Assembly: GCF_016598535.1 (NCBI RefSeq)
Contig: NZ_CP066779.1
Span: 1 to 64,000 of the forward strand
DNA: 64,000 nucleotides
DNA from: Rhodococcus sp. P-2
GTDB taxonomy: Bacteria; Actinomycetota; Actinomycetes; Mycobacteriales; Mycobacteriaceae
Direction of reading: 5' to 3'
The first letter of the stretch is position 1. Every line of letters starts with the position of its first letter. Shown piece by piece: positions 40,701 to 58,523 of this stretch. Position numbers and translations under genes: made by a program. The notes below the pieces were generated by a model. The model was not told the DNA's origin, ran no database searches, and saw only the letters and a program-made list of their open reading frames with translations.

Positions 40701-40725
40701 GTGGTCCCGGCTGGGATCGAACCAG
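40701..40725 (-). repeat. Left att repeat (attL core, tRNA-Val 3' remnant)
   Basis: A 25-bp perfect match to 58499-58523, including ggtcccggctgggatcgaac. It holds the T-arm and acceptor 3' half of tRNA-Val and nothing more of the tRNA. It marks the left border of the element. Confidence 0.9.
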
Positions 40726-40858: not shown

Positions 40859-42022
40859 ATGGCCAGAAAAGTATTCGGACGCATTGAAAAGTTGCCGTCA
40901 GGCCGGTACCGAGCCCGCCACCCCGACCCCACTCCGGGGAGCACGGAGCGCATCCCGGCACCCAGCACGTTTAGCACCAAGGGCGCTGCACAGACCTGGC
41001 TGAACACGCAGCAGGACGCAATCGCCGGGGGCACCTGGGTACACCCAGATGACGCTGCCGTGGCACAGCAAGCCACCAAGGCCGAGAAGGCACGTAAAGC
41101 TGTCGCGTTCGGTGTGTACGCCGAGAAATGGGTCGCCACCAGGACCAATAGCAAGGGTGAGCCGCTACGCCCCCGCACCCGCAAGGAATACGAGCGGATG
41201 CTTGGCACAACCGGATCGCTATTCCATTGGGCGGCAACACCTATCAACGAAATACGTGCCGATGCAGTGCGCGAGTGGCGATCTGAACTACTCGCATCCG
41301 GCAAGGCCACAGCCACCGCGAGGGCCTACGACTTAATGAAGTCGATATTGAAAACAGCCGTAGAAGACGGCCTGATCAGCGCAAACCCGTGCAAAATCAA
41401 GGGTGGCTCGCTGACTACCACGGGGAAGTCCACAACGCCGCCGACCGAGGTCGAACTGGACATCGTCATCGAAAAGATCGTGCCGAAGTACAAACCATTC
41501 GTGATCATCGCCGCCGCCGGCGGCCTACGATTCGGCGAAGTCATCGGCCTGACTAGCGACGATGTGGCCGTTGAGCGCGATGGCGACGGCGATGTGGATG
41601 CGGTGCGGATCGCTGTCGTGCGCAGCATCGTCGAAGGCAATGGCATCGCCAAGGTAGCCGGACCTCCGAAGAGCGCCGCAGGGCGACGAATCATCGCAAT
41701 TTTCGGCCACGACGCCCGGATCGTGGCCGCCCACGTCGAATCCGTGAAACCGGGCGCACTGCTGTGGACAGACCGTAGCGGTGGTTATGTGTCACAAAGC
41801 ACAGTGAATAACCACTGGCGAAAGGCTCGGGCAGCAGCAGGCCGCTCCGACTTGGCGTTTCACTCGCTGCGCCACTATGCGGGAACTCGCTACGCGCAAA
41901 CCGGCGCAACGGTGGCCGAAACTATGGCGCGGCTGGGACACAGCAGCGTGAAAGCCGCAATGCGCTATCAACATGCCGGTACCCGTGACGACGAGCTCGC
42001 CAGGCGCGCTTCGCGCCGGTGA
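40859..42022 (+). CDS. int: Tyrosine-type site-specific integrase
   Basis: Catalyses integration into and excision from the tRNA-Val site. The 387-aa protein has an N-terminal arm-binding region, a core-binding SAM-like domain (about 80-165) and the catalytic domain with Arg in AAGGLRFGEVIGL (near 222), HSLRHYAGTRYA (near 333), LGHSS and the nucleophile Tyr in AMRYQHAG (near 368). It is complete and begins 134 bases inside the left border, pointing inward. Confidence 0.96.
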   Translation: MARKVFGRIEKLPSGRYRARHPDPTPGSTERIPAPSTFSTKGAAQTWLNTQQDAIAGGTWVHPDDAAVAQQATKAEKARKAVAFGVYAEKWVATRTNSKGEPLRPRTRKEYERMLGTTGSLFHWAATPINEIRADAVREWRSELLASGKATATARAYDLMKSILKTAVEDGLISANPCKIKGGSLTTTGKSTTPPTEVELDIVIEKIVPKYKPFVIIAAAGGLRFGEVIGLTSDDVAVERDGDGDVDAVRIAVVRSIVEGNGIAKVAGPPKSAAGRRIIAIFGHDARIVAAHVESVKPGALLWTDRSGGYVSQSTVNNHWRKARAAAGRSDLAFHSLRHYAGTRYAQTGATVAETMARLGHSSVKAAMRYQHAGTRDDELARRASRR

Positions 42023-42376: not shown

Positions 42377-43618
42377 ATGAAACAAATTTGCGACGACACA
42401 TTGGATCAAGACGTGACCGAAGACCGTGAGCCGACCGCAGCTGAGATCGAGGCTTGGCAGCGTGAAGAGCTGTTCATACCTGCAGATGAGACGACTGTTG
42501 GTACCTATCCCCGGATCTCGAATATGTCAGCCGGATTCATCTACAACGGCATCATCAGACCGGAACAGCCGGAAACCCCGGAATACGTCACAATCCCGAT
42601 GAAATCCAGCTCAGTGGAACTGGACGTCGCGGTCAGCCGCTGGAACATGTTGTGGGAGTCTGCTCAGTTCCGCCGCCGGTTCTTCGACTCCGACGAGCTT
42701 CCAGGCAAGTTGGGTGAACTCGCCGAACTTGGCGATGTCAATCTGCTCTTGGTGCCCCGTACTGCAACCCGATACTTCGAGTACGCGCCGCTCCTGCACC
42801 TTCTATCGAGACGGACTCTCGAGCATTTCGGACTCCCACTTCTCCGAATGGGACAGTGGCCGTTCCTTATCGAACGGGCGAATATCGACAAGTACCTACC
42901 CCATGACTTTGAGCGGCGCTTATCCCGTGCGTGGGCGTGGGAGGTTTGGCCACACCTGAACTCTGGATCCGGGTTGCGTGCCTTCTCGGAGGATGATCCG
43001 ATCCGGCTTCTTGCCCATAATCTCGATTTCTGGGTACCTCCGGTCACTTCTATCATCCAGGGCATTCTGCGCGAGTTTCCTGAAGTCGACAAAGGCGTAC
43101 TTCCAGGACCAGTCCCGTTGATAGACGGCGGATTCCTCGAAGGCGCGGTCACTGGGAATCCACGCATGGGCGGGGACATCTGGTGCGGTGAGCGGGAAGC
43201 TGCTGACGTACTCAAACAGACTGTGAATGAAGGCGATTCGACAGGTCGATTGCGCGAAATTCTCGATGCCGTCCGTTCGAACCGACTCGAAGACGATTTC
43301 TCAGATCGGTGGTCCTACGCACGCGAGGATTTCGAACGCAAGCTTTACAACAAGCGCGCGAAAGTATCGGTTCGGTTCGTCGAGCTGACCGACACGATTC
43401 CGGTGCAAGGACCCGAGAGTGAGGTGCTCGGCAACATGGTGACCAATGATTTCCTCGCTCTGCTCGATGAGCAGCAGCGCCAGGTCGTCATCCTGCTCAA
43501 CAGTGGATGGACCAAGCAAAAGGAGATCGCCGAGCGTCTCGGCTATGCCAACCACAGCCCGATTTCGAAGCGTCTGACCGACATTAGGAAGACAGCAGAA
43601 AAGTTCTTCGGCGAGTGA
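42377..43618 (+). CDS. Unknown 413-aa protein with C-terminal helix-turn-helix
   Basis: Not recognised over most of its length. The last ~65 residues (NDFLALLDEQQRQVVILLNS, then KQKEIAERLGYANHSPISKR) have the pattern of a sigma-70 region-4-like helix-turn-helix, so it likely binds DNA. The N-terminal 330 residues are soluble, with an acidic start and several Trp/Phe-rich segments. Preceded by a divergent-looking intergenic region and followed by a 320-base gap. A regulator of the island or a sensor is the best guess. Confidence 0.6.
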   Translation: MKQICDDTLDQDVTEDREPTAAEIEAWQREELFIPADETTVGTYPRISNMSAGFIYNGIIRPEQPETPEYVTIPMKSSSVELDVAVSRWNMLWESAQFRRRFFDSDELPGKLGELAELGDVNLLLVPRTATRYFEYAPLLHLLSRRTLEHFGLPLLRMGQWPFLIERANIDKYLPHDFERRLSRAWAWEVWPHLNSGSGLRAFSEDDPIRLLAHNLDFWVPPVTSIIQGILREFPEVDKGVLPGPVPLIDGGFLEGAVTGNPRMGGDIWCGEREAADVLKQTVNEGDSTGRLREILDAVRSNRLEDDFSDRWSYAREDFERKLYNKRAKVSVRFVELTDTIPVQGPESEVLGNMVTNDFLALLDEQQRQVVILLNSGWTKQKEIAERLGYANHSPISKRLTDIRKTAEKFFGE

Positions 43619-43860
43619 AGAGTCCAGCGCGCATACAGAGCAATACGTCGACCACATCAACGATTCCGGTGCCCAACCCCAGAAAGGCTCTTATGCGCAA
43701 GTCGGGTACCTCACTAGACACTTTGCGAGGCACTTCTAACCTCATTCACACCGTGCAATCGCTTTTCTGGGGCCATCCCTTCGGTGGCGCCGACGATGTA
43801 GAGCCCAAACCAGTTGGCAATCAAACTCGGAGTGATCGGCTGATCGCTCGTGCTACGGCG
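43619..43860. other. Intergenic region upstream of the regulatory pair
   Basis: I find no convincing gene between the stop of the 413-aa gene and the promoter near 43861. One open frame crosses it (43615-43911) but has weak codon bias and no ribosome site. Confidence 0.4.
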
Positions 43861-43905
43861 TTCGACATACCACCGATGTCCATATTTACTACCTCAAATG
43901 AGGTA
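43861..43905 (+). promoter_or_regulatory. Promoter with palindromic operator
   Basis: A -35-like ttcgac (43861-43866), 16-base spacer and -10-like tattta (43883-43888), directly followed by the perfect palindrome tacctcaaatgaggta (43890-43905, 7-bp arms, aa centre). The palindrome covers the expected transcription start, as an operator for the linked XRE repressor would. Confidence 0.55.
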
Positions 43906-43938
43906 CGGTAAGTGGACACCCTGAAGGAAGGTAGCCAA

Positions 43939-44598
43939 ATGGAGGCCCTACGGCTTGCTGGACTGCCGGAATCCGACGCCCGTCTCGCACAGTTCGATCT
44001 CTCTGTGGCCGAGATCCACAATCAAGTCATTTTCCCTGCGCTGCAGTCGGCTGCCAATGTCAGTCCGCTCGCGCCCAAGGGTGCAAGCGGAAGAAGTATG
44101 TACGACACCGGCGTTCAATCGCTCCGCTCGCTGTTGCTGCCCAAAGGGTGGTCAATTGCCGAGGCGGACAACGTCGCTCGCACCGTCCAACGCGATCGCG
44201 GAATTGCGATCGTGTTTTCGAAGGGTAATGCGTCTACGGGCCTTCACGGACTGACAGGCAGCTTGACGACCGGATGGCCGAAGGGTTCGGCCGCGTTCTC
44301 GAACGCTCGCGCTACCCCTCCAAGTGGGCTCGAGTCGGTCGATCCTTCTGGCTTCAACTGGTTCCCCAAGAAGGGCGACCGGGACGAATGGGACTTGTGG
44401 TACTTGATGTACTACCCAACCGAGTCCGAGATCCGGCTGGAGCTCAGTGCGCCAACATGGCAGGACAACACCGGGTATCCACGGGGATGGAACGACAACG
44501 ACCGCATTCTCCTCCCACCCATTCCGACAAATCCGAACTCCGAGATCGACGACGAGGAAGACTCCCCCATCCCAGACGTTCCCGTCGAGGAATTGTGA
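43939..44598 (+). CDS. Unknown 219-aa protein paired with XRE/ImmA protein
   Basis: Not recognised. A soluble protein with a Trp-rich middle (FNWFPKKGDRDEWDLWYLMY), a likely beta-rich domain and an acidic Pro/Asp tail. The ATG at 43939 has aaggaagg eight bases before it; the in-frame GTG at 43912 is less likely. The next gene begins in its stop codon. The pairing resembles ImmA-linked partner genes whose product is regulated or cleaved by the peptidase; this is inference. Confidence 0.6.
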   Translation: MEALRLAGLPESDARLAQFDLSVAEIHNQVIFPALQSAANVSPLAPKGASGRSMYDTGVQSLRSLLLPKGWSIAEADNVARTVQRDRGIAIVFSKGNASTGLHGLTGSLTTGWPKGSAAFSNARATPPSGLESVDPSGFNWFPKKGDRDEWDLWYLMYYPTESEIRLELSAPTWQDNTGYPRGWNDNDRILLPPIPTNPNSEIDDEEDSPIPDVPVEEL

Positions 44599-45707
44599 CC
44601 GCACACGTCAAGTCCGAGTTCCTACCGTCGCGGCTCGAATTCGCGCGCCGGCGACGGGGACTCCCTCGAACCAAGTTGGCCCAACAGGTCGACGTGGCAT
44701 CAAAGACACTTCAGAGGTGGGAATGCGGCGACGTCGAGCCGAGCCCAGAGCAACAGGACGCACTGGCGCGCACACTCGGTGTGCTCCCGAGCTTCTTTCA
44801 CGCGGACGAGATCGACCCACTGCCTGATGGGTCGGTGAGTTTTCGTGCATTAAGCAAGATGACCGCGGGTGAACGTGGAAGCGCAACCGCGGCAGGCCGA
44901 CTTGGCGTCGAATTTATGCAGTGGATTGAGACCCGATTCAAGCTGCCAGGAAATGGCGTGCCGATTCTTACCGGTTTGGATCCAGAGACTGCGGCCGAAG
45001 GTGTGCGCGCACAATGGGGTCTGGGTGCCAAGCCTATTGCTCAGCTGGTACCGACACTCGAGATGCACGGCATCCGGGTACTGAGCTTGGCGCCGGACTA
45101 CCGAAATGTGGACGCATTCAGTTTCTATCGCGATGGCACTCCTTATGTGTTCCTCGATACAAGCAAAACCGCGGAACGTCTGCGATTTGATGCGGCCCAC
45201 GAACTTGGTCATCTGGTGTTGCACGGTGAACACGTTCATCCGCAAGGCAGGGAAGTCGAATCGGAAGCGAACCAGTTCGCGAGCTCTTTCCTCATGCCGA
45301 AGGACAGCATTTTGGCGGCCAACTTGTATGGTGCGAACGCCGACCAAATCATTCGAGCCAAGCGGAAGTGGCGTGTATCTGCAATGGCGCTTGCGCACCG
45401 ATTGAACGGGTTGAACCTATTGTCCGAGTGGGGATATCGATCCGTCTGTGTCGATCTCAGCAAACGAGGCTTTCGTCGCAGCGAGCCAGGATCTGACATG
45501 GTCCGAGAGTCTTCTCAGCTGCTCAGCAAGGTTATGAATGTGCTTCGTAACCGTGGCATGTCTCACAAGGAGATCGCGAAACAGCTCGGACTCCCCCCGG
45601 AAGAGCTTGCCAGCTATCTGTTCGGGCTAACCGTAACCCCCCTCCCCGGCGAAAGCCAAGGAGGAGGAAACCGGTCAATGGCAGCACTGACGCTGGTTCG
45701 AGAGTGA
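44595..45707 (+). CDS. XRE-family regulator fused to ImmA/IrrE metallopeptidase
   Basis: A 370-aa protein with an N-terminal XRE helix-turn-helix (LPRTKLAQQVDVASKTLQRW, near residues 18-40) and a central zinc-peptidase domain with the HExxH motif DAAHELGHLVLHGE, plus a downstream Glu-rich ligand region (ESEANQFASSFLMP). A second helix-turn-helix-like stretch lies near the C-terminus (SHKEIAKQLGLPPEELASYL). The GTG start overlaps the partner's stop (GTGA). Such proteins control mobile elements or antitoxins by cleaving a repressor. Confidence 0.88.
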   Translation: MTAHVKSEFLPSRLEFARRRRGLPRTKLAQQVDVASKTLQRWECGDVEPSPEQQDALARTLGVLPSFFHADEIDPLPDGSVSFRALSKMTAGERGSATAAGRLGVEFMQWIETRFKLPGNGVPILTGLDPETAAEGVRAQWGLGAKPIAQLVPTLEMHGIRVLSLAPDYRNVDAFSFYRDGTPYVFLDTSKTAERLRFDAAHELGHLVLHGEHVHPQGREVESEANQFASSFLMPKDSILAANLYGANADQIIRAKRKWRVSAMALAHRLNGLNLLSEWGYRSVCVDLSKRGFRRSEPGSDMVRESSQLLSKVMNVLRNRGMSHKEIAKQLGLPPEELASYLFGLTVTPLPGESQGGGNRSMAALTLVRE

Positions 45708-45921
45708 CAACGAGCAAACCAAGAGCGCCTCATCAGCGAACTTCAATGACCGGCCCGCGGATCTCCAACTGCCTATCCGTGATTGTGGGAGACGTCGTGA
45801 CCCAAACCGATCAACTAACTACCTAACCGTTCTGCCATCGCAGACCAGGCTCATTCTGGGGAACCAGCGCAGCAGCCAACTCCACGCCAGCATGACCCGC
45901 AGAGAATGAGGAACTACACAG
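45708..45921. promoter_or_regulatory. Leader region of the methylase-helicase operon
   Basis: 214 bases between the XRE/ImmA gene and the methylase. It should hold the operon promoter, but I cannot pick a clear -10/-35 pair; the 43890 palindrome is not repeated here. The gap is AC-rich with no inverted repeat strong enough for a terminator. Confidence 0.35.
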
Positions 45922-48900
45922 ATGCCAATCGCCAGCGCGGACGGTAACGCCAACAACTTGGTGCCAGAGTGGGACGACTGGTTGAAGTGGGAACGTAAGT
46001 CCGGACCGATCATCGCGACAAAGGTTCTGCGCGGGAGTGTGGAGACTAACCTCGCAGTCATCCTCGCATCTGCTCCGTCGATTCCGACGAAGTCCGATCT
46101 CCAATTCATGTGGCGGGACAGGTCACATGGCGGGGTCAACCCGGTATTGGTCACGGTCACCTACGAAGCCCAGAAAGTCCCGCTGGTCGCCTTGCTCGGC
46201 CTCGATGATGACGCGGTACCAGTGATGGGCCTCGCACCCGAACTAGCTGATCAACTAGTTCGGGATGCGTTGGAGATGTCCAGTCTCAGTGCACTCCACA
46301 GCGAGGTCCGTCGCCGGCTGGGTACCCTCGCCGCCGGGGTCGCCTCTGGGGTCAGGAACGAAGGCCTGTTCGCCTCGCACGTGCTCGAACAACAACCACA
46401 AACCGCCGCCTGGATAGGTCTGTGCGAATCGGCGAAACCTCTGCTCGCCAAGCGAGGCGAGGGCCTTCTGAACGGTCTCGGTTACACGGTGGAACCCGTG
46501 CCGGAAGGTCGCGTACTGCGCGATACGAGCGGATCGGTACGCAGTGCAGCTGCGGTACTGCTTGCCGATGGGGAGTCCTTCGATAATCCGCTTGGTCGAT
46601 TACATGGCAGCAATGCCGTAAGTCATGGGCTCGCTCTCGCTCGACGAGAGCACCTGGATTGGCTGGTCGTACTCGGTGGTTCGGTTATCCGCCTGTATCC
46701 GGTCGATCCGGACGTGGGTGTCGGCCGCAAGGGGCAGACACAGACCTTCGTCGAACTGGACCTGTCGTTTCTCACTGCCGGCCAGGCAGGCTTCCTGACA
46801 CTGTTGCTTTCTCCGGACTCTCTTCGGGACAAAGGCACGATCACGCAGTTGCTCAGCGACTCGGTCCGGTTTGCTGCCGGACTCTCTGAACGGCTTCGCG
46901 ATCGCATCTACAGCGACGTCATCCCGCCGCTCGCTGTGGCCGTCGCGGCCAAGCTCGGTGTTGCTGATCTGCCGCAGGATGAACAGAAGTCTGCCCTTGA
47001 CGAGGCATACCACCAGTCGATGATCATCCTATTCCGCCTGCTGTTCGTCGCGTACGCCGAGGACAGGAAACTGCTGCCCTACGAGGTCAGTGATCGATAC
47101 ACGCGCAATGCGCTCAAGACGCTCGCGTTGGATATCCTCACCGACCCAGAACAGCTGTTCGACAAAAACTCGACCACTCTCTGGGATGATCTGACCCAGG
47201 TATGGAAGGTTATCGACACTGGTGACCTGCACGGTTGGGGTGTCCCTGCGTACAACGGGGGACTCTTCACTCACGACAAGGTCAAGAACCCTGCCGGCGC
47301 ATCGACCTATGAACTAGAGCTAACAAACAGCACGATCGGGCCCGTCCTGCGCGGTCTCCTCATCGACGACACCCGCGATGGCACCCTCGGCGCAGTCGAC
47401 TTCCGGTCGCTATCAGTTCGCGAATTCGGCACCATCTACGAAGGACTCCTCGAATCCGGTCTCGGCATCGCAGAAGCCGACCTCACCCTCGACGAGAACG
47501 ACACCTATGTCCCTGCCCAGAGCGGCAACAGGGCAGTCGTGTCGGCGGGCGAAGTGTATTTTCACTCTCGTAGCGGATCCCGCAAAGCAACAGGCTCCTA
47601 CTTCACTAAGCCTTTCGCAGTCGAACATCTCCTTGATACGGCATTGGAGCCGGCACTAGACACCCACCTCGACCGCATTGCGGGTCTCCTCACGGCAGGC
47701 GCAACCAAATCCGCGGCCGAGGCGTTATTCGACTTCCGCGTCGCCGACCTCGCGATGGGCTCAGCGCACTTTCTGGTCGCCGCTGTCGACCGCATCGAAG
47801 CTCGATTCTCAGCGTTCCTTATCGAAAACCCACTGCCGGAGGTTGCCGTCGAGCTCCACACCCTCCGTACTGTCGCAGCAAAGCAGCTCGGACTCGATCC
47901 GGCTGAATCCGGGATCGACGATGGAGTGCTGCTGCGTCGCCAGATCGCCCGCCGTTGCATTTACGGCCTCGACATAAACGAGATTGCGGTCGAGTTGGCC
48001 CGACTCGGGCTCTGGATCCACACATTTGTACCGGGTCTACCACTTTCATTTCTCAACCACGGTCTGATCTGGGGTAACAGCCTCACCGGTGTTGGCACAC
48101 TGGCCGAAATTAGTGAAGCGCTCACGGAAGCAGAAAAACGCGAACTGAAGAAGGGACACGCAATCCAATCGAGCACTCTCGACGACGCGCTACTCGAATT
48201 CATGGACCGTTCAAGCGCCCATCTCGCCGCACTCGGGTCCTTGGCCGACGCCAGCGTGGGCGATGTCGCCCACGCTGGCAAGGTCCAATCCGACCTCCTG
48301 GCAGCACTCGCGCCACTTTCGGCGCTGTGCGACCTCATCACTGCTGAGCGAGCAACCCGGCACCTCGGCAACGAGAGCATTGAGGTCGTTGTCGACCCAG
48401 GGTTCGGGCAGCCGAAAAAGACGAAAAAGAAGTCGGTCCCGCATCCGGACAGGGTCCTGTTGACCGCAAATCCGGGGCTATTCACGGCGCTGAATGCTGA
48501 GACTCTCGAGATCGCGATCATCGCGCACCCTGATCTTCCCAGGGCACGCAGGATCGCAGCCTCGCTTCATGCCGCGCACATGCCGGTTCAATTTCCTGAG
48601 GTGTTCCGCCGCGAGAGTCCTGGATTCGATTGTCTCCTCGGAAATCCCCCCTGGGACAAGGTTCGCCATGAGCCTCAACAGTTTTGGGTGACTCGAGATC
48701 CAGGCCTCAACGCGCTCAGTACGCCAGGGCGAAACAAGCGCATCAGCTTCCTCCGCGACAACAAGCCCGAGGACGCCGAGGACGAGCGAAGGGAACAAGA
48801 CCTCCGGGAGACCATCCAAGCGATTGCATCGAACGGTTACACCTTACTGGGTGGAGGGCATTTCGATTTCGCAAAGATGTTCTGCGAGAGGTTTGTTCGG

Positions 48901-50082
48901 CTGGTTCGAGTCGACGGTACGATCGGGGTCGTACTTCCGCAGGCTGCCATGCTCCTGTCCGGTTGGTCGAAGCTGAGGGCGCAGTTAGTTTCCAATGGTC
49001 GCGTAGTCGCCGCGGAATGCAGGAATGCAGGAGGTTGGCTGTTCGAGAATGTTCATCACAGCACCGCGGTTGTTCTGATGTCACGGACTTCGAATGATGG
49101 CGGCGTCACGATCCTTCCCGGGCTGACATCACGCGCAGCATTCGATAGACGGTGGGAAGTCGGTATCGACCTCACGAGCTCAGAAGTTTCGGAACTTTCG
49201 GACACCCACGTACTGCCGTGGTTCAACACACCTGCCGATTCTCGCCCATTCAATCTCATGCGCTCACATCCGAAGCTGAGTAGCGGAGATGGATGGATCA
49301 CCGGGACAAGCGATTCTGGCAGGTGGGATTTCAGCGGAAGCGGAGCTCACAGCGATTACGCACTGCCGACTCCCCTGGAAGATGGCAATTGGTTGATACT
49401 CAAGACCAGACACGTCGATGCATTCACGATCACCAACGACCCGTACGACAAACAGATCGATCCGTTTGAACTTGAACCGCTCGGCCGCGGGATCGTGACC
49501 TCTGAAGGCGTAGCACGACTAGATAGCTCACACCCGATGATTACGTACCGGTTCCCGAGCCGGAACGATGACAGTCGCACACTCATCGCCACCGCACTGC
49601 CAGAAGCTGGCTATCTGTTCAGCACGGGATATGCCCATGGAGTCAAGCATCCGACAGGGACAGAGATCGCTCCGATCCTCGCGCTGCTCGGGTATATGAA
49701 CTCGATTGTGGCGGACTGGTGGTCACGCAGATTCGTCGATCGTCACGTAGGCGCACGCATAATCAACGGCCTGGTTCTCCCGCAGTGGAGTACGGATCAG
49801 ATCGAGGAGGCCGCTGCATGCACTCGTGATCTTCTGATCGCCGGAGGAACAACGCGCGTTGCAGAGGGCATCTCACTTTCCGCGGTTGCTCCAAATGTTG
49901 TGGTAAACGGCGACCCAAGAGTTCGGCTCGATGCGTTGGCGATCAGAGGAATTGGCATGACAAGTGAGGACGTGCAGGTCTTGTTGTCGGACTTCAAGAT
50001 AACCGCCGCTGCCGTGCCAGCTCGGCATCGAGCTGACTTGGTGGCATCGCTTTCGGCATACGAAGCGGGAGGCACCCAATGA
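45922..50082 (+). CDS. PglX/Eco57I-type N6-adenine DNA methyltransferase
   Basis: A 1386-aa protein. The catalytic core has the S-adenosylmethionine motif VADLAMGSAHFLVAA (near 606-620) and the adenine-methylase motif NPPW (908-911), about 290 residues apart as in PglX, DrmMI and type IIG Eco57I-like enzymes. The first ~550 residues resemble the N-terminal region of type IIG enzymes without an obvious PD-(D/E)XK nuclease; the last ~300 (ILKTRHVDAF, NSIVADWWSRRFVDRHVGAR) look like a target-recognition domain. It overlaps the helicase gene by 4 bases (ATGA). Probably marks self DNA for the partner nuclease. Confidence 0.9.
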   Translation: MPIASADGNANNLVPEWDDWLKWERKSGPIIATKVLRGSVETNLAVILASAPSIPTKSDLQFMWRDRSHGGVNPVLVTVTYEAQKVPLVALLGLDDDAVPVMGLAPELADQLVRDALEMSSLSALHSEVRRRLGTLAAGVASGVRNEGLFASHVLEQQPQTAAWIGLCESAKPLLAKRGEGLLNGLGYTVEPVPEGRVLRDTSGSVRSAAAVLLADGESFDNPLGRLHGSNAVSHGLALARREHLDWLVVLGGSVIRLYPVDPDVGVGRKGQTQTFVELDLSFLTAGQAGFLTLLLSPDSLRDKGTITQLLSDSVRFAAGLSERLRDRIYSDVIPPLAVAVAAKLGVADLPQDEQKSALDEAYHQSMIILFRLLFVAYAEDRKLLPYEVSDRYTRNALKTLALDILTDPEQLFDKNSTTLWDDLTQVWKVIDTGDLHGWGVPAYNGGLFTHDKVKNPAGASTYELELTNSTIGPVLRGLLIDDTRDGTLGAVDFRSLSVREFGTIYEGLLESGLGIAEADLTLDENDTYVPAQSGNRAVVSAGEVYFHSRSGSRKATGSYFTKPFAVEHLLDTALEPALDTHLDRIAGLLTAGATKSAAEALFDFRVADLAMGSAHFLVAAVDRIEARFSAFLIENPLPEVAVELHTLRTVAAKQLGLDPAESGIDDGVLLRRQIARRCIYGLDINEIAVELARLGLWIHTFVPGLPLSFLNHGLIWGNSLTGVGTLAEISEALTEAEKRELKKGHAIQSSTLDDALLEFMDRSSAHLAALGSLADASVGDVAHAGKVQSDLLAALAPLSALCDLITAERATRHLGNESIEVVVDPGFGQPKKTKKKSVPHPDRVLLTANPGLFTALNAETLEIAIIAHPDLPRARRIAASLHAAHMPVQFPEVFRRESPGFDCLLGNPPWDKVRHEPQQFWVTRDPGLNALSTPGRNKRISFLRDNKPEDAEDERREQDLRETIQAIASNGYTLLGGGHFDFAKMFCERFVRLVRVDGTIGVVLPQAAMLLSGWSKLRAQLVSNGRVVAAECRNAGGWLFENVHHSTAVVLMSRTSNDGGVTILPGLTSRAAFDRRWEVGIDLTSSEVSELSDTHVLPWFNTPADSRPFNLMRSHPKLSSGDGWITGTSDSGRWDFSGSGAHSDYALPTPLEDGNWLILKTRHVDAFTITNDPYDKQIDPFELEPLGRGIVTSEGVARLDSSHPMITYRFPSRNDDSRTLIATALPEAGYLFSTGYAHGVKHPTGTEIAPILALLGYMNSIVADWWSRRFVDRHVGARIINGLVLPQWSTDQIEEAAACTRDLLIAGGTTRVAEGISLSAVAPNVVVNGDPRVRLDALAIRGIGMTSEDVQVLLSDFKITAAAVPARHRADLVASLSAYEAGGTQ

Positions 50083-53000
50083 CATCGTGGAGGTGGGAGG
50101 GTCGACCCGACTTCGCAACGAACGATCCGACGCAGCCGGTGTCGGTGGCCGACGCGGTGAACGAAATGCTGGAGTTCACACTCCCGAATGAGTCACAGGA
50201 CCGGTCTGTGGCGATCGCATCCGCTTACTTCAATGTAGGTGGGTGGCAATTACTTTCGGACGAGTTGAAGCAAGTCGGAAAAGTACGACTGATGTTGGGC
50301 GCCGAACCGCAGCGCGACACGAACCCTGTAGTGCTTCGTCCCGGAACCACCCCGCGGCGTCGTGCCGCGGAAGCGAACCTTGCTGAAGCGCTGAACGCAC
50401 AGCAGAACGCCCTCGCACTCGAACGCAACCTCGGCGACTTCACCTCTCTAGCGCGCTCACAGGTCGAGGACATGATCTCTTGGCTCCGAGCGGGCAAGGT
50501 TGAGGTCCGCAGGTACACAAAGGAGTTCCTGCACGGCAAGGCGTATCTGATCGACAACCCCGCGCTGGGGGTGATCGCCGGGTCCAGCAACTTCACATAT
50601 GCAGGGCTGGCGAAGAACCGGGAACTGAACTTGGGCCAGTACAACCAGTCGACGATCGTCGCGGTCAGAGACTGGTTTGACGAACTGTGGGCCGAGGCAG
50701 ACACGTTCGATCTGGCCGGATTTTACGCGCAGCAGGTGATCCCGGATGAGCCGTGGATCGTCTTCCTACGGATGCTGTGGGAGTCCTACGGCAGCCAGAT
50801 CGAGGGGGACGAGCAATCTCTTGCGGCGGACCCATCGATGCGGGATTTGCTGCCCTTCCAGAAGGACGGCGTCGGCAGGGCACGGCGCATCCTGGAAAAG
50901 CACACCGGCGTCCTGATCGCCGATGAGGTCGGGCTGGGCAAAACATACGTCGGCGGCGCGCTGGTCAAGGACACGGTACGAGCCCGACAGCGAGTTCTGA
51001 TCGTCGCCCCTAAGATCATCCGGGATTCCGTGTGGAAACCGTACGTCGATGTCAACAATCTGGGCGGATGGGTCGACGTCGTCTCCTATGACGACCTGAT
51101 GAAGGTCGACCAGGACGACAACCCCACCTACGGACTACCTGCCGGCCGTGACCCGGACGAATTCGCTCTGGTGCTACTCGACGAGGCGCACACGGTCCGC
51201 AACACCGACACCCGCCGCGCCAAGCAGCTGGTCGGGATCTTGAAGGGCAACCCACGTAAACGGGTAGTGCTCCTTACCGCAACCCCGGTCAACAACGCGC
51301 TCGGGGACCTACACAGCCTGTTGTCGTACTTCATCGTGCACGATGACGAGTTCGCAGAGATCGGCATCCCGAGCCTGGCCGGGCACTTCAAAGCCGCCGA
51401 CAAAATGAACCCAGACGACCTGTCTCCAGAGCATCTGTTCGACATCCTCGATGCCGTCGCGGTCCGGCGCACCCGCCGATTCGTCCGCAACCATTACGTC
51501 GGTCAGAAAATCGACAAGACCGGCGCGACGTTGGTATTCCCCGAACCGAAGGTGCGCCGCGTCGACTACGACCTCACAACCGTATTGGAAGGTTTCTTCG
51601 ACACGTTCGCTCACGCACTCGGTGCTGACCGGGACGAGAACGAACCAGACCCGTTTTACGCCGGTGAGATCCCCGACGAAGGCCTGGCCAGCATCGACGG
51701 GAACAGGCTCACGCTCGCCGGCTACACACCGTCGAGGTATCGGTACGACAAAAACTACAGGCCGTACGAAGTGCAGGTTGCGGGACTGTTGCGTTCCGGT
51801 CTACTCAAGAGATTTGAGTCATCAGGATACGCCTTCATTTCGACGTGTCGCAAGATGGCCGAAACCCTGGGCGGGGTCGTCGATCTGATCGAACAAGAAC
51901 AACTCGTGGCATCGGGCGACTCCTTACGGGAATGGATGCGCATCGACCTGGATGACCCTGCAACCCTTGATGAGTGGCGCCAAACAGCAGACTACGAACC
52001 TGTCGGCGACTACCGCGCCGCCCCATTGGCTGCAGACATCCGCAACGATATTCTTCTACTTGGGAAGATGGCGACCACTGTCGAGGACAGCATCAAGCCG
52101 GGCGCCGATCCGAAGTTGGCGGCACTGACCGAAACCCTGGTGAAGGTGGTCGCCGAGGCGGACCGCGACGCCGGTTTACGCGCAGCTTCCCTGCTCGACA
52201 TCGACCCGGCCGAGAAGAAGTCTCGCGACCGCGACGACCTCAAGATTGTCGTCTTCTCCTACTTCGCCGACACCATTCACTATTTGCAGGACAACATCAA
52301 TCAGATCCTGAACGACTCCCGACTGGCCGCATACAAAGACCGGTTCGCATTCGTGACTGGAAGCATGAGGAAGACCGTGGGGCACGGCGCCGGAGCAGGA
52401 ACCGTCAACCAGGAACAAGCGGTAGAGGGGTTCGCCCCCAAAACCGGTGGCCCCCAAGACCGTGACGGCAACCCGACCGCCACAGACCGGTACGACCTAC
52501 TCTTCGCCACAGATGTTCTCGCCGAAGGCGTGAACCTTCAGCAGGCCCGCAACATCGTCAACTACGACCTGCCATGGAACCCGATGCGACTGGTGCAACG
52601 GCATGGCCGCGTGGACCGAATCGGCAGCGACCACCCGTACGTGTACCTGTGGTGTTTCTTCCCCGACCAGGCGCTAGATCGACTGCTGAAACTGGAAGCA
52701 ATTCTGCACCGCAAACTTGCGAAGGCCGCGAAATCCATCGGCACCGGACAAGTCCTCCCGGGTATCGCAGCCGGCGACGACGTCGTATTTAACGCCCGAC
52801 GTGACCAGATCACCGCCATCGCAGACGGCGACAACGCACTCTTCCTCGGGACCAGCGGAGGGCTCATCTCCGGCGAAGAGTTCCGCGCGACGCTCCGCAC
52901 GGCCATCGACGACGACTCCCTCGCTAACCGCCTCGAAGCGCTGCCTTGGGGGATCGGATCCGGTTTCACCGCCTCGGATCGGGCAGCAGGCTTTGTCTTC

Positions 53001-53684
53001 TGCGCTCGGATCCTCGACAGGGACGGCGAACCCGCGTACCGGTTCATCGCGCTACCACCAGCCCTCCTGCCGCATCCGGAAGAAGGGGAACTCCAGGTCC
53101 CAGTAGAAGAACTGTCCGCGGAAGATCTGCTCGAATCGGGTGTCGCAGAGCAAGGAGGACGACCCAACATCGACGGCACACCCGTCGATGTCATTCGCGA
53201 CACCCTCTCTGCTCTTACCGTCGCCCGCCCTTCGAGTCCACACACGCCTGCGGTGCTACCGGAGTCGTGGCGTGAGCTCGCGTACAAGGCATGGGCCGTC
53301 GCACAGCAAGACATTGCTGACATGTGGAACGACAGCCTCGACACCACCGGCCAATCCGGTCCGGTCCCGCCGACCATCCGCGAAGCCGTTAAACACCTGT
53401 CACAGCACGGTGAACACCGCAACCGCGATGACGTGGACCTGGCGATGAAAGTCTATTCCCGTGGACAAGCCTCCCGTGTCACCAGCGTCGTCCGGTCCGT
53501 CATGCACGACGAAAACCTGACTGATCAGAACCAGACGGACAGGCTCATCGAACTAGTCGATGAACTCGGACTATCCGCGCCGGAGAACAAACCGAAACGG
53601 TTCGCCATCGAGTCGAGCGATATTCATCTCATCGCGTGGATGGCAGTCCAGCCGGAGTTCCCTATCGAAGCGGTAAAGGAATAG
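50079..53684 (+). CDS. PLD-nuclease / SNF2-type helicase fusion
   Basis: A 1201-aa protein. N-terminal phospholipase-D domain (to about 230) with HGKAYLID and AGSSNFT, the single HKD-type motif of PLD nucleases. Then a superfamily 2 helicase: Walker A DEVGLGKTYVGG (near 282), LVLLDEAHTVRN (near 365), LLTATPVNN (near 397), and C-terminal LFATDVLAEGVNLQ and QRHGRVDRIG (near 840), which place it in the RapA/HepA-like SNF2 group. The last ~300 residues are unassigned. Translationally coupled to the methylase. Predicted to translocate on DNA and cut unmodified targets. Confidence 0.9.
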   Translation: MTSWRWEGRPDFATNDPTQPVSVADAVNEMLEFTLPNESQDRSVAIASAYFNVGGWQLLSDELKQVGKVRLMLGAEPQRDTNPVVLRPGTTPRRRAAEANLAEALNAQQNALALERNLGDFTSLARSQVEDMISWLRAGKVEVRRYTKEFLHGKAYLIDNPALGVIAGSSNFTYAGLAKNRELNLGQYNQSTIVAVRDWFDELWAEADTFDLAGFYAQQVIPDEPWIVFLRMLWESYGSQIEGDEQSLAADPSMRDLLPFQKDGVGRARRILEKHTGVLIADEVGLGKTYVGGALVKDTVRARQRVLIVAPKIIRDSVWKPYVDVNNLGGWVDVVSYDDLMKVDQDDNPTYGLPAGRDPDEFALVLLDEAHTVRNTDTRRAKQLVGILKGNPRKRVVLLTATPVNNALGDLHSLLSYFIVHDDEFAEIGIPSLAGHFKAADKMNPDDLSPEHLFDILDAVAVRRTRRFVRNHYVGQKIDKTGATLVFPEPKVRRVDYDLTTVLEGFFDTFAHALGADRDENEPDPFYAGEIPDEGLASIDGNRLTLAGYTPSRYRYDKNYRPYEVQVAGLLRSGLLKRFESSGYAFISTCRKMAETLGGVVDLIEQEQLVASGDSLREWMRIDLDDPATLDEWRQTADYEPVGDYRAAPLAADIRNDILLLGKMATTVEDSIKPGADPKLAALTETLVKVVAEADRDAGLRAASLLDIDPAEKKSRDRDDLKIVVFSYFADTIHYLQDNINQILNDSRLAAYKDRFAFVTGSMRKTVGHGAGAGTVNQEQAVEGFAPKTGGPQDRDGNPTATDRYDLLFATDVLAEGVNLQQARNIVNYDLPWNPMRLVQRHGRVDRIGSDHPYVYLWCFFPDQALDRLLKLEAILHRKLAKAAKSIGTGQVLPGIAAGDDVVFNARRDQITAIADGDNALFLGTSGGLISGEEFRATLRTAIDDDSLANRLEALPWGIGSGFTASDRAAGFVFCARILDRDGEPAYRFIALPPALLPHPEEGELQVPVEELSAEDLLESGVAEQGGRPNIDGTPVDVIRDTLSALTVARPSSPHTPAVLPESWRELAYKAWAVAQQDIADMWNDSLDTTGQSGPVPPTIREAVKHLSQHGEHRNRDDVDLAMKVYSRGQASRVTSVVRSVMHDENLTDQNQTDRLIELVDELGLSAPENKPKRFAIESSDIHLIAWMAVQPEFPIEAVKE

Positions 53685-53687
53685 CGC

Positions 53688-53771
53688 ATGGACTATTTCG
53701 TCATGGGATTCGCTTGCAACATTGCTGAGGCCAGAGACAGGTGGTGCGGATATGTCGGTCAGTCTGGATGA
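53688..53771 (+). CDS. Possible 27-codon ORF overlapping the nucleotidase start
   Basis: An ATG three bases after the helicase stop, behind a strong aaagga ribosome site, opens a frame MDYFVMGFACNIAEARDR... that ends inside the nucleotidase gene, 20 bases past its ATG. It could carry ribosomes into the nucleotidase start (coupling) or be a real small protein. Only the ribosome site and the geometry support it. Confidence 0.35.
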   Translation: MDYFVMGFACNIAEARDRWCGYVGQSG

Positions 53772-54738
53772 TCAGCTGGTCATTGGTGTTGCGTCCAGCG
53801 CATTGTTCGACCTCAAGGAATCGCATGACGTATTCCTTCGGGAAGGCGAGGAAGGGTATCGGAAGTTCCAGGAGGAGCATCTCGACGATCCGCTTCGTCC
53901 TGGGGCGGCCTTCGCGTTCATCAAGCGACTTCTGTCTCTCAATGACCGCGCCCCAGAGGATGATTCACCGTTCGTCGAAGTGATCGTCCTATCCCGTAAC
54001 GATCCTGACACGGGGTTACGAGTGATGCGCTCGATCCAGCATCATGGTCTTTCCATCACTCGAGCAGTCTTTCGTCAAGGGCGTTCACCACACAAGTTCA
54101 TGCCAGCGTTCAACATGTCCTTATTCCTTTCCGGAAACGAGGAAGATGTCCGTCAAGCCGTCGCAGCAGGCCACCCAGCTCGGCTGGTGCTCGGAGATGC
54201 AGTGGAAGATGCTGATAACAACGCCGATCTGCGAATTGCATTCGACTTCGACGGCGTACTTGCCTCGGACGAATCTGAACGCGTGATGCAGCAAAGCGGA
54301 TTGGATGACTTCCACCTCAATGAGGTCGAGAAAGTTTCCGAACCATTGAAGCCAGGTCCCTTGCGGGACTTACTCGCCGCTGTAAACCGCATCCAGAAAG
54401 TTGAAGAAAAGCGCCGCTTGGCCGACCCTGCGTATCGGATTCGGGTACATGTCGCGATCGTCACCGCACGAAACGCCCCTTCGCACGAACGTGCAGTCCG
54501 TAGCCTCAAAAGCTGGGGCGTCACCGTAAATGATGCCTTCTTTCTCGGCGGGGTATCGAAGGCAAAAGTCCTTGAGATCCTCAAACCGCACATCTTCTTC
54601 GACGACCAGACCAAGCATCTTCTACCAGCGTCCAAGGTCACCCCGTGTGTACATGTTCCTTTCGGGATCACCAATACAGACGTATCTCGACAGCAGCAGT
54701 CAGAGAGCAAGAATGAAGCAGTGGAGGTCTCTTCGTGA
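53752..54738 (+). CDS. Cytosolic 5'-nucleotidase I-like HAD protein
   Basis: A 328-aa protein matching the cN-I 5'-nucleotidase family: the HAD nucleophile motif AFDFDGVLASDESE near residues 163-176, VAIVTARNAPSHER near 235-248 and the late acid motif KPHIFFDDQTKHL near 277-289. The N-terminal half (VIVLSRNDPDTGLRVMRSI) is the family's conserved first domain. Family members dephosphorylate (deoxy)nucleoside monophosphates. The ATG at 53752 has aggtgg before it. It closes the methylase-helicase operon, an unusual place for a nucleotide enzyme. Confidence 0.85.
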   Translation: MSVSLDDQLVIGVASSALFDLKESHDVFLREGEEGYRKFQEEHLDDPLRPGAAFAFIKRLLSLNDRAPEDDSPFVEVIVLSRNDPDTGLRVMRSIQHHGLSITRAVFRQGRSPHKFMPAFNMSLFLSGNEEDVRQAVAAGHPARLVLGDAVEDADNNADLRIAFDFDGVLASDESERVMQQSGLDDFHLNEVEKVSEPLKPGPLRDLLAAVNRIQKVEEKRRLADPAYRIRVHVAIVTARNAPSHERAVRSLKSWGVTVNDAFFLGGVSKAKVLEILKPHIFFDDQTKHLLPASKVTPCVHVPFGITNTDVSRQQQSESKNEAVEVSS

Positions 54739-54869
54739 GGGTTACGGGAGGAGACGGGCCTTCCACGGAGTGCTATCGAACGGCAATCTGGTGCCGAGAC
54801 TATGCCTCCGGCAGCGTGGATTTACTACGACCGACACGCCATCGTCGTAGTTGTAAATCCTCCTCGTAA
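54735..54869 (+). CDS. Possible short coupled ORF after the nucleotidase
   Basis: A GTG overlapping the nucleotidase stop (GTGA) with ggagg seven bases before it opens a 44-codon frame (MRVTGGDGPSTECYRTAIWC...). The overlap style is the same as elsewhere in the island, but the C-terminal part is Arg/Ser-rich and looks non-coding, so it may be the head of a decayed gene. Confidence 0.3.
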   Translation: MRVTGGDGPSTECYRTAIWCRDYASGSVDLLRPTRHRRSCKSSS

Positions 54870-55166
54870 AACGAACTTGGTCTCAACAGGTCAAGAACGA
54901 TTCCGAGGCATGCAAAGATGTGACATCGTCGTCGGTGCCATCCTGACCCTCCGTGACGGCATGCCGAAACCCCGGGCGCGGAATTTCAGACATGGTCTTC
55001 CCCCTCTGTGATCTTGCGCACAACGCGTTTGACGCATGACCCTCGACATCTCGGGTTCCTCGCCCGTGGCGGTCGATCTATTTCCTGGTGTTGGATTCAA
55101 TCAAGCTTTATGTCGGTGAGCTGGAGAACAGCCGCTACTGTCAGCACACCCCGGCCGAGTCGAGGT
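54870..55166. other. Gap between the defence block and the lipoprotein cluster
   Basis: A frame at 54802-55011 (MPPAAWIYYDRHAIVVVVNP...) runs into this gap but has no clear ribosome site or relatives. No insertion-sequence ends or strong hairpins are visible. It may hold gene remnants. Confidence 0.3.
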
Positions 55167-56186
55167 TCAGAAGTGACGTTCGAGCGCGGCGAGGGTGGCC
55201 GCGTCCATCGCCCCGGTCAGCTGCGTGTCGTCGAGGTCGACGGGGATCAGCTTGCCGACAGCAAGGTGACCTGAATGTTCCCGAAGGTGAGCGATGTGAC
55301 CAACAGTTCTCCCTGGCCCGACCGAGATGAAGACGAGTGTCGGGTTGGCAGGGTACTCACTCGCATCGTCGGCTGCACCGTTCGGCAGGACGCGTTGAAT
55401 ACCACCGCGAATCGCGGTGAGATGCGAGTAATGTTCGCCGGCCGCCACCGCACTCATGTACTCGGACAGATTGCGAGAGTCCACGACATGCGTTGGCATC
55501 AACGATTCTTCAAGGACGGCACCGTCTTTGGTGCCGAACAGTATCGCTGTCCGCGCAAAGGTTGCCGCGTCGGTGAGCGCAGTATCGGCGGCGAGTGTGC
55601 AGACGGTCTCGTGCACGGTATCGATCACACGCTGGAAGTCGGCTTCGGCGTGGGCTACCTGTTCGGCGGCGGGAATCCGCGAATCGAGGGACTCCGACCA
55701 GAACTGCAGTATCCGATTCCGAGCAAGTTGATGCGTGTCGTGAACTCGATCGCTCAGCTTGGGTGGCGCGAAGGTTTCGGTCTGCAGATGCGGCGGTGTC
55801 AACGGATTCGACAACGAGATCGTCCAACCATGTCGCCCCGATGGAAAGATCATCCCGGCCCCTTGACCGAGAAGGTCGAGGACGATTTCGCTTCCTACCT
55901 CAGCGTCGTTGAGGTGACTCGGATCCAGTGGTGAGAATTCCTCGAACGCCAACTCTTGATCACGCAGGTAGCGCGTGATGCGGACGCGTTCACTCGGATC
56001 AACATTCGTCCGGGCTTGCTGAGCTGCGACCTGCGCCTTACCGAGGTCGGTAGTGTCGAGAACGTGTGTGGCCGTTCCCGATCGAGATGAACTGACGACG
56101 TAACGGTTTCTGCGTAGCTTCGCAAACATGAGGCCAGTGTAGGTATTGCCGTCGACAGTGTTTGCGACAGCTCGAGTCCAGCTCAC
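55167..56186 (-). CDS. Unknown 339-aa protein coupled to a lipoprotein
   Basis: Not recognised. A soluble, mixed alpha/beta protein without signal peptide or membrane segment; a beta-rich start (KLRRNRYVVSSSRSGTATHV), a central helical part (ISLSNPLTPPHLQT...LARNRILQFW) and VFISVGPGRTVGHIAHLREH near the end. The GTG at 56186 overlaps the lipoprotein stop by 4 bases; an ATG at 56129 is an alternative start. Cargo of the element. Confidence 0.6.
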   Translation of the reverse strand: MSWTRAVANTVDGNTYTGLMFAKLRRNRYVVSSSRSGTATHVLDTTDLGKAQVAAQQARTNVDPSERVRITRYLRDQELAFEEFSPLDPSHLNDAEVGSEIVLDLLGQGAGMIFPSGRHGWTISLSNPLTPPHLQTETFAPPKLSDRVHDTHQLARNRILQFWSESLDSRIPAAEQVAHAEADFQRVIDTVHETVCTLAADTALTDAATFARTAILFGTKDGAVLEESLMPTHVVDSRNLSEYMSAVAAGEHYSHLTAIRGGIQRVLPNGAADDASEYPANPTLVFISVGPGRTVGHIAHLREHSGHLAVGKLIPVDLDDTQLTGAMDAATLAALERHF

Positions 56187-56881
56187 CAGGTGAGGTAATC
56201 GGTCGAGGAGATGTGGAAACCGTGTCTTGCTCCAGGTTCGAGGAGACAGGTCAGCCTACTCGGCCGGGAACCACAGGTGACCGACGTTTTATCTGCAATG
56301 GAGAGCAGGATCGTCATCTTCGTGCCGTATTCGAAGACCGCGGAGGAGGCGGCATAGTCCGGACCGACACCGCTTGTGCCTTGCCGCGCACAGTGTGCCG
56401 GCGCCTGGGTGTACGGGGCGGGAGGGTTGCCCCAACCGATGAGGTTGGAATCAGAGACCAGGTCGTTGCGGTTGACCGCGCACCAGTCTCCGCTGCGCCA
56501 TTCCGGCGGATCGACCACGTAGCAAGTGCCCTGCGTTGGAGTGAAATTGCAGCCGACGGTGCTGTCGAGCGCACTGAAATGAGTACCAAGCCCATTCCCG
56601 GTGTACGGCAGGGCAGAGACCTCGGTCAGGTCCGACATGTCGGCGAGCTGGGTGGGACTGAGAACGAGAGGTGTCGATGTCACCGAAGATGAGGTAGGGC
56701 TAGATGCACTTGTGCTTGTGCCGGTTCCGGCGGTGATCGGTACCTGTGTCGTTGAGAACCTGGTCTCGGAAGTGGGTGATGCGCTGCCGGTGGTATCGGA
56801 TGAGCATCCTGCGAGAAGGCCGGCGAACGCCGCGATCGCGGCGGCTGTCGCCAGGTACCTGCGTGAGCTGTTGCGAAGCAT
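56183..56881 (-). CDS. Lipoprotein, unknown function
   Basis: A 232-aa lipoprotein: signal peptide MLRNSSRRYLATAAAIAAFA with lipobox LLAGC (Cys25), a long Ser/Thr/Pro linker and an extracytoplasmic domain with six cysteines that probably form disulfides (VGCNFTPTQGTCYVV, GDWCAVN, HCARQG, VTCGSRPSRLTCLL). The frame is open 30 codons further upstream, but the ATG at 56881 has a ggggga ribosome site. Typical of Rhodococcus/Nocardia surface proteins of unknown role. Confidence 0.75.
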   Translation of the reverse strand: MLRNSSRRYLATAAAIAAFAGLLAGCSSDTTGSASPTSETRFSTTQVPITAGTGTSTSASSPTSSSVTSTPLVLSPTQLADMSDLTEVSALPYTGNGLGTHFSALDSTVGCNFTPTQGTCYVVDPPEWRSGDWCAVNRNDLVSDSNLIGWGNPPAPYTQAPAHCARQGTSGVGPDYAASSAVFEYGTKMTILLSIADKTSVTCGSRPSRLTCLLEPGARHGFHISSTDYLTW

Positions 56882-56958
56882 GATGATTTCCCCCGGTTTT
56901 TCGTTCGAATGAAACTTACGTCGAGCCCACGACATGAGGTCGTGCCTGTCCGCCTGGT

Positions 56959-57228
56959 CTACAGAGTGCAAACCATCGACTCGGGGAGATGGGCAGGCAT
57001 GGTGCCAACTTTGCTGACCTTCCCGCTATCCCAGGTGAGGGTGTAGTTCGCCCGGCCGGTCATACCGGGATTGCTGTCACCGAGTTCGGGATAGCGGTAT
57101 GTCACCGCGACTGTGTTCTCGCCTGCAGCTTCGACGGCGGAGATGGTGACGTAGCACGTCGATGCCGGACCCACGAATGCACCGTCGTGGAGGAGCGGAA
57201 TGGCAACCGGGCTGGAATTGGTGGCCAT
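56959..57228 (-). pseudogene. Secreted-protein-like ORF lacking a normal start
   Basis: From ATG 57228 the frame encodes 89 residues with two cysteines (ASTCYVTIS, SMVCTL) and a beta-rich look. Upstream in the same frame, back to a stop at 57331, the codons read like a signal peptide (RRHIVAGPCAALSFATTTVA) but contain no ATG, GTG or TTG. Either translation starts at 57228 without the export signal, or the start has been lost by mutation. It lies upstream of the lipoprotein on the same strand. Confidence 0.45.
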
Positions 57229-57303
57229 TGCGACCGTGGTCGTTGCGAAACTCAGTGCCGCGCAGGGTCCAGCGACGATGTGTCGGCGGTGCTCTCCCCC
57301 GAC

Positions 57304-58226: not shown

Positions 58227-58236
58227 GGAGACTCCA

Positions 58237-58498: not shown

Positions 58499-58523
58499 GT
58501 GGTCCCGGCTGGGATCGAACCAG
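58499..58523 (-). repeat. Right att repeat (attR core)
   Basis: Matches 40701-40725 over 25 bp; it forms the 3' end of the intact tRNA-Val gene, so the element restored the tRNA on integration. Confidence 0.9.

What the first reader, a model, noticed from the sequence alone, without database searches (positions are those of the whole stretch)
45922..54738. Candidate restriction-type defence system: PglX-like methylase, PLD-SNF2 fusion and a 5'-nucleotidase in one operon
Seen: methylase motifs (DLAMGSAHF, NPPW), a coupled protein joining a PLD nuclease to an SNF2-type motor, then a cN-I-like HAD protein. Known: PglX (BREX) and DrmMI/DrmD/DrmC (DISARM) use methylase, SNF2 and PLD parts, but as separate genes with further partners (PglZ, BrxC, DrmA, DrmB) that are absent here. 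Inference: this is a compact system in which the fusion replaces several subunits and the nucleotidase starves replication by consuming nucleoside monophosphates. The nucleotidase link is the part I have not seen described.
Basis: partly seen in the sequence, partly recalled or inferred. Interest (0 to 1): 0.82.

Follow-up and report, generated by a model that had tools for sequence, protein, structure and literature searches.

The report
Two-gene restriction system on mobile island
A bacterial mobile DNA island carries a compact two-gene system that probably marks the cell's own DNA and shreds foreign DNA; a nucleotide-degrading enzyme and a known antiphage toxin-antitoxin pair sit beside it but do not appear to be part of it.

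Summary
The three genes are real, at the stated coordinates. Two form a conserved unit: an Eco57I-type adenine methylase (45922-50082) and, overlapping it by 4 nt, a PLD(HKD)-SNF2 fusion (50079-53684). All 25 close loci I compared carry both; no third gene recurs in more than 4. Best reading: an ATP-dependent restriction-modification module. The methylase carries the target recognition and a nuclease-like N-terminal fold that looks dead; cutting falls to the PLD-SNF2 motor, as in CglI or SauUSI. The nucleotidase (PF06189; PADLOC PDC-S08) behaves as an independent mobile gene: absent from the DNA held for 86 of 86 other PLD-SNF2 loci. Of 296 Actinomycetota genomes, 27 have a PLD-SNF2 relative, 7 the nucleotidase, and only the window's own has both. 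BREX, DISARM and Type-2 BREX-related membership fail on defining parts. Restriction activity is inferred, not shown.

The parts
40701..40725 (.). left copy of a 25-bp direct repeat (attachment-site repeat)
40859..42022 (+). tyrosine integrase of the island
   Evidence: Phage_integrase PF00589 54.9 bits
43912..44598 (+). RmrT-like toxin of a RosmerTA pair (neighbouring system, not part of the restriction module)
   Evidence: PADLOC RmrT 123.8 bits
44595..45707 (+). RmrA-like antitoxin (HTH + ImmA/IrrE protease domain), GTG start overlapping the RmrT stop by 4 nt
   Evidence: PADLOC RmrA 461 bits; Pfam; start
45922..50082 (+). Eco57I-type N6-adenine DNA methylase with a nuclease-like, apparently degenerate N-terminal fold and a variable C-terminal region
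50079..53684 (+). PLD(HKD) nuclease - SNF2 motor fusion, 4-nt ATGA overlap with the methylase gene
53752..54738 (+). PF06189 5'-nucleotidase (HAD), PADLOC PDC-S08; likely an independent cargo gene
58499..58523 (.). right copy of the 25-bp repeat, in the 3' end of the tRNA-Val(CAC) gene 58498-58571 (minus)

Best explanation
A two-gene ATP-dependent restriction-modification module carried as cargo on a 17.8-kb integrative island. The methylase recognises a short DNA site, probably with its variable C-terminal region, and methylates adenine to mark self DNA (inferred from family). The PLD-SNF2 protein, probably as a dimer because one HKD motif was seen per chain (inferred), is directed to unmethylated sites, uses ATP to translocate and cuts DNA with the PLD domain (inferred from CglI, NgoAVII and SauUSI). 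The nucleotidase and the RosmerTA pair are separate cargo of the same island.
For: Shown: both genes in 25 of 25 close loci from Actinomycetota, haloarchaea and others, and no other gene in more than 4 of 25. In 12 of 17 junctions checked the PLD-SNF2 frame can start in a 4-nt overlap with the methylase stop. In 296 Actinomycetota genomes all 7 with a methylase match below E 1e-100 also have a PLD-SNF2 match. HGK/HAK motif in 24 of 25, QRxGRxxR in 25 of 25, Walker A in 23 of 25. GNPP[W/F/Y] in 19 of 19 methylases. Methylase identity to the window 55-61% over residues 501-700 but 14-33% over 1051-1386, as expected for a recognition region that changes. Residues ~170-311 of the methylase model resemble type IIG nuclease domains (BpuSI Z 6.9, DrdV 6.8), but the strand where I expect ExK reads A-x-A in 16 of 19 rows, which leaves cutting to the PLD partner. 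SNF2 motor Z 18.4. In the distant PLD-SNF2 group 61 of 67 loci carry a second conserved gene; both examples scanned are Eco57I methylases.
Against: No activity, methylome or phage data. Z of 6.9 is in the range where unrelated folds score, Foldseek alone found no match below E 0.001 for that model, and the place of ExK is my reading of the strand order, not a residue alignment. The methylase N-terminus (residues 1-250) is also poorly conserved, 12-35%, so low identity alone does not prove a recognition region. Eight of the 20 genomes with a methylase match have no PLD-SNF2 match at E 1e-60; all eight are weak matches, 1e-31 to 1e-39. A methylation-dependent (type IV-like) mode is not excluded. 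One close relative, L068, lacks the Walker A pattern, L186 lacks several motifs, and in six of the 25 loci the methylase is partial or in more than one frame.
Confidence: 0.72

Rival explanations
1. Three-gene system: methylase, PLD-SNF2 and nucleotidase act together, the nucleotidase draining nucleoside monophosphates to starve phage replication.
For: Same strand, 67 bp apart, with no terminator-like site listed between them. HAD residues D175, D177, T248, K280, D294, D295 invariant in 8 of 8 rows (the motif assignment is recalled). Plasmid pTC1 carries both pair and nucleotidase, 49 kb apart. HAD phosphatases that lower nucleotide levels serve as effectors elsewhere (PMC12715507, passages).
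Against: Nucleotidase in 0 of 86 other PLD-SNF2 loci, within the DNA held; joint occurrence in 1 of 296 genomes, the window's own; nearest relatives, 83% identical, on plasmids without the pair in the stretches fetched.
Confidence: 0.07
2. The nucleotidase is a stand-alone antiphage gene (phage defence candidate) that travels in mobile and defence islands and happens to be next to this system.
For: PADLOC PDC-S08 461.8 bits, as are 6 of 6 further nucleotidases scanned; PDCs were named by guilt-by-embedding (PMC10855318, passages). Type I R-M genes within the fetched stretch in 9 of 33 nucleotidase loci (7 E. coli, 1 Klebsiella, 1 Arcobacter) and in 0 of 20 random actinobacterial stretches. Other neighbours include Dsr1, TerY-P, Hhe, AbiH and SAVED/ThiF.
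Against: The R-M queries came from the same loci and the controls from other taxa; no R-M query matched any actinobacterial nucleotidase locus in that call, the window aside; one of eight E. coli regions viewed has none; several loci show only plasmid or metabolic genes. No functional test turned up in searches.
Confidence: 0.5
3. The pair is a DISARM or BREX-related remnant that lost its partners.
For: Methylase matches DrmMI at 200.6 bits and helicase DrmD at 106 bits; a 2026 paper describes HKD-SNF2 plus N6-methylase in Type-2 BREX-related systems (PMC12839542, passages).
Against: The two-gene form recurs in 25 of 25 close loci without a widely conserved third gene, so it is not a local remnant. 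DUF499 is not found in this genome and not beside the pair in the two of nine genomes that have it; PglZ not found here.
Confidence: 0.12

Closest known systems
CglI / NgoAVII restriction-modification systems (PMC5737866 abstract; PMC4267653 search listing)
   Same: ATP-dependent restriction with a separate methylase and a helicase-like ATPase; that the R subunit is a PLD nuclease is recalled, not read in a call
   Different: three genes with nuclease and ATPase separate; here both are fused in one SNF2-type protein, and the methylase is a large Eco57I/type IIG-like protein
SauUSI (PMC7913695 abstract)
   Same: nuclease domains that dimerise plus a helicase-like ATPase that translocates and shreds DNA; the PLD label for its nuclease is recalled
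   Different: SauUSI recognises methylated targets with its own recognition domain; here a methylase gene lies adjacent in all 25 close loci compared
Type-2 BREX-related (BR) systems, the group also named Hma (PMC12839542, passages)
   Same: N-terminal HKD endonuclease fused to a Swi2/Snf2 helicase of RapA-like layout, plus an N6-methylase
   Different: BR systems centre on a DUF499 ATPase, and Type-2 nearly always adds DUF3780; DUF499 was not found in this genome
DISARM class 1 (DrmD, DrmMI)
   Same: partial profile matches of helicase and methylase
   Different: below the DrmD family cut-off; no DrmB or DrmC match, and DrmA only as a weak helicase-domain hit, among nine island ORFs
RosmerTA (RmrT/RmrA, PMC10440598, passages)
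   Same: both profiles matched, genes overlapping by 4 nt
   Different: a neighbouring system, not the subject of the finding; toxin activity untested

Membership tests
BREX | PglZ present | tested here: not met
   PF08665: no match in the window's genome
BREX | full PglX methylase | tested here: not met
   NCBIfam PglX model 28.4 bits, cut-off 500
BREX | BrxC ATPase | tested here: inconclusive
   not seen in PADLOC scans of nine island ORFs; whole genome not searched
DISARM | DrmD helicase | tested here: not met
   NF038317 127.8 bits against a cut-off of 610
DISARM | DrmA, DrmB and DrmC beside the pair | tested here: not met
   none among the nine island ORFs scanned, apart from a weak DrmA hit (50 bits) of the SNF2 motor itself
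Type-2 BREX-related system | HKD-SNF2 fusion and N6-methylase | tested here: met
Type-2 BREX-related system | DUF499 ATPase | tested here: not met
   PF04465: no match in G000; matches in 2 of 9 pair-bearing genomes, 0.8 Mb away or on other contigs
Type-2 BREX-related system | DUF3780 gene | tested here: inconclusive
   no third gene in more than 4 of 25 loci; profile not searched genome-wide
Type IIG restriction enzyme | methylase with an active nuclease domain in the same chain | tested here: inconclusive
   nuclease-like fold at ~170-311 but A-x-A in 16 of 19 rows at the place where ExK is expected
ATP-dependent restriction-modification (CglI/SauUSI-like) | PLD active-site and SF2 motor motifs | tested here: met
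   present in the window protein; HGK/HAK 24 of 25, Walker A 23 of 25 loci
ATP-dependent restriction-modification (CglI/SauUSI-like) | ATP-dependent cleavage and protective methylation | not testable with these tools
   needs biochemistry and a methylome
RosmerTA | adjacent RmrT toxin and ImmA-type RmrA antitoxin | tested here: met
   by profile only; definition
PF06189 5'-nucleotidase / PDC-S08 | full-length profile match with HAD catalytic residues | tested here: met

The most novel reading that the evidence does not exclude
The PF06189 nucleotidase is a general partner of restriction in mobile islands. After restriction enzymes shred phage DNA it dephosphorylates the released 5'-deoxynucleotides so that they cannot be recycled into new phage genomes; here it does so next to a PLD-SNF2 shredder, in enterobacterial islands next to type I systems.
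Probability: 0.1. Interest if true: 0.75.

Novelty: new variant of a known kind. Interest (0 to 1): 0.37.

Why it matters
It points to a widespread two-gene form of ATP-dependent restriction, for which my searches found no name, that needs none of the extra BREX or DISARM subunits, occurs in bacteria and archaea, and is small enough to test whole in a laboratory host. It also separates a tempting but unsupported nucleotidase link from the real unit.

Tried and rejected
Nucleotidase as third subunit: rejected on co-occurrence. BREX, DISARM and Type-2 BR membership: rejected on missing parts. The N-terminal methylase domain as an active nuclease: not favoured. A solved structure for the nucleotidase: none by sequence profile. 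For the methylase profile only two distinct PDB sequences matched, weakly. Promoter and terminator scan of 43500-55300: no more sites than in shuffles, so it says nothing about transcripts. Phage and viral collections: 3 of 50,697 phage records and 5 loci from the viral contigs carry a nucleotidase relative. The occupied site in G021 was looked at for a sister defence island: its ends match, but the integrase frame is short (140 codons); I only listed its ORFs and profiled none. The type I R-M association of the nucleotidase is weak evidence: queries came from the same loci, two queries (ThiF, Hhe) were translated in a wrong frame from cut genes and are unreliable, the stretches differ in length (3 to 20 kb), some loci are near-duplicates, and the controls were actinobacterial only. 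Literature searches that returned no paper naming the two-gene form: (open-licence PMC only). PMC12255303 was searched for RmrA, PLD, SNF2, nucleotidase and ImmA without a match.

Full report
WHAT IS THERE. The window is the first 64 kb of a 6.34-Mb single-contig genome; its identity is not given, and close plasmid relatives of its nucleotidase suggest Nocardiaceae (inference). Three frames lie on the + strand: a 1386-aa methylase at 45922-50082, a 1201-aa PLD-SNF2 protein at 50079-53684, and a nucleotidase whose likely ATG is at 53752, ending at 54738. Profiles confirm the three identities.

THE SURROUNDINGS. A 25-bp direct repeat at 40701-40725 and 58499-58523 has its right copy in the 3' end of tRNA-Val(CAC). 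In six of the 28 genomes of the genus searched (own genome included; G015, G010, G017, G025, G008, G004) the left flank up to 40725 and the right flank from 58499 meet with an overlap of exactly 25 bases, the empty site; G003 and G011 show slightly longer overlaps compatible with it. The island is thus 17,798 bp, with a tyrosine integrase at 40859-42022. In G021 both island ends are present 29 kb apart, with other content. Inside the island, just upstream of the methylase, RmrT (124 bits) and RmrA (461 bits) overlap by 4 nt: by profile a RosmerTA pair, a known antiphage toxin-antitoxin type (PMC10440598, passages).

THE CONSERVED UNIT. tblastn of the PLD-SNF2 protein against 72,556 plasmids gave 6 records with at least 80% coverage. 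All 6 have the methylase directly upstream, at 38-46% (PLD-SNF2) and 34-46% (methylase) identity to the window; they come from Rhodococcus, Euzebya, Mycobacterium, Paenarthrobacter and two haloarchaea. L064, L066, L071, split contigs (L189, L190) and weaker or shorter loci were dropped. Methylase and PLD-SNF2 occur in 25 of 25; in L062, L063, L065, L072, L073 and L182 the methylase is partial or in more than one frame. The next most frequent neighbour, in 4 of 25, has a GmrSD (DUF262) domain in the one member scanned. In the 296-genome sample the methylase matches 20 genomes (E up to 1e-30) and PLD-SNF2 27 (E up to 1e-60); 12 have both, among them all 7 with a methylase E below 1e-100, while the 8 weakest methylase matches lack PLD-SNF2. 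A more distant PLD-SNF2 group shows a second conserved gene in 61 of 67 loci; the two scanned are Eco57I methylases, and in the six examples printed the gene lies downstream of the helicase. At 17 junctions 14 show a start codon overlapping the methylase stop; two of these (L067, L070) do not open into the PLD-SNF2 frame, leaving 12.

DOMAINS. The methylase N-terminal model (552 aa, pLDDT 85) holds at ~170-311 a fold resembling the nuclease domains of type IIG enzymes BpuSI (Z 6.9, rmsd 4.1, 119 aligned) and DrdV (Z 6.8, rmsd 15.5, 228 aligned) and of HsdR (Z 5.0). These Z values are modest and Foldseek alone gave nothing below E 0.001. The strand where I expect the ExK motif reads A-x-A in 16 of 19 rows; the assignment is mine, from strand order. 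I infer a degenerate nuclease domain. The C-terminal third is poorly conserved (14-33% over 1051-1386 against 55-61% over 501-700), but so is the N-terminus (12-35% over 1-250). The PLD-SNF2 model (pLDDT 80.7) ranks RapA first in Foldseek (E 3e-15, low TM), and its motor matches SNF2 remodellers at Z 18.4. HGK/HAK was found in 24 of 25, QRxGRxxR in 25, GSxN in 24, Walker A in 23, DExH and TATP in 22.

THE NUCLEOTIDASE. It is a full PF06189 member with the HAD residues conserved, found in 0 of 14 control genomes and once in this genome. It is absent from 80 of 80 genome loci and 6 of 6 plasmid loci of the PLD-SNF2 family, within the DNA held (loci range from about 3 to 24 kb). In one sample of 296 Actinomycetota genomes the PLD-SNF2 profile matches 27, the nucleotidase 7 (E up to 1e-20), and only the window's own genome has both; 0.6 would be expected by chance. 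In the genus it is in 1 of 28, the window's own. Its closest plasmid relatives (86.2% and 82.5% by tblastn, 83% in the alignment) sit by recombinase, sigma-factor and helicase genes. Against my reading: plasmid pTC1 has both, 49 kb apart. In E. coli, relatives occur in 96 of 5,426 genomes. Of eight E. coli regions viewed, seven hold type I restriction genes, six of these beside an integrase or its fragment; the eighth does not. In one search, 9 of 33 nucleotidase loci held type I genes, all from E. coli, Klebsiella or Arcobacter. PADLOC files it as phage defence candidate PDC-S08, which in the held library appears in one paper, with an even split between resistant and susceptible strains (PMC10855318, passages).

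MECHANISM. Shown: conserved pairing, gene overlap, motif conservation, island location. Inferred: adenine methylation of self DNA, site recognition by the variable region, ATP-driven translocation and PLD cleavage of unmodified DNA. Precedents: CglI (PMC5737866, abstract), SauUSI (PMC7913695, abstract). I put this at 0.72.

COMPARISON. The nearest described architecture is the HKD-SNF2 helicase of Type-2 BREX-related systems (PMC12839542, passages), which centre on DUF499 and nearly always carry DUF3780. DUF499 was not found in this genome; in two of nine pair-bearing genomes it occurs, but on other contigs or 0.8 Mb away. PglZ was not found in this genome. PADLOC's C3a139 'HKD+Snf2' model matches at 164 bits; I did not find its source. 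HKD domains fused to helicases in R-M operons were noted as early as 2008 (PMC2292703, passages). Hence: a new variant of a known kind, ordinary in its logic, with the nucleotidase link set aside.

Noticed in passing
43912-45707: RosmerTA pair (RmrT, RmrA) directly upstream of the methylase on the same strand; RmrA may or may not also control the restriction genes.
   Followed up: partly
40701-58523: 17.8-kb tRNA-Val island with exact empty sites in six relatives; a second 23-bp repeat (40816-40838 and 58416-58438) lies just inside both ends, perhaps integrase arm sites.
   Followed up: partly
L223-L224 (G021:C41:215800-251100): The same tRNA-Val site holds a different island of about 29 kb with matching ends in another genome of the genus.
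   Followed up: partly
42377-43618: 413-aa protein with a weak sigma-70-like C-terminus (20 bits, below cut-off), no Pfam or PADLOC match.
   Followed up: no
L061, L226-L231: In seven of eight E. coli regions viewed the PF06189 nucleotidase lies with type I restriction genes, often also a gene annotated as phosphorothioated-DNA-binding endonuclease and an integrase.
   Followed up: partly
L192 (G204:C8), L076, L081: Distant PLD-SNF2 relatives have the opposite gene order, helicase first and methylase second.
   Followed up: partly
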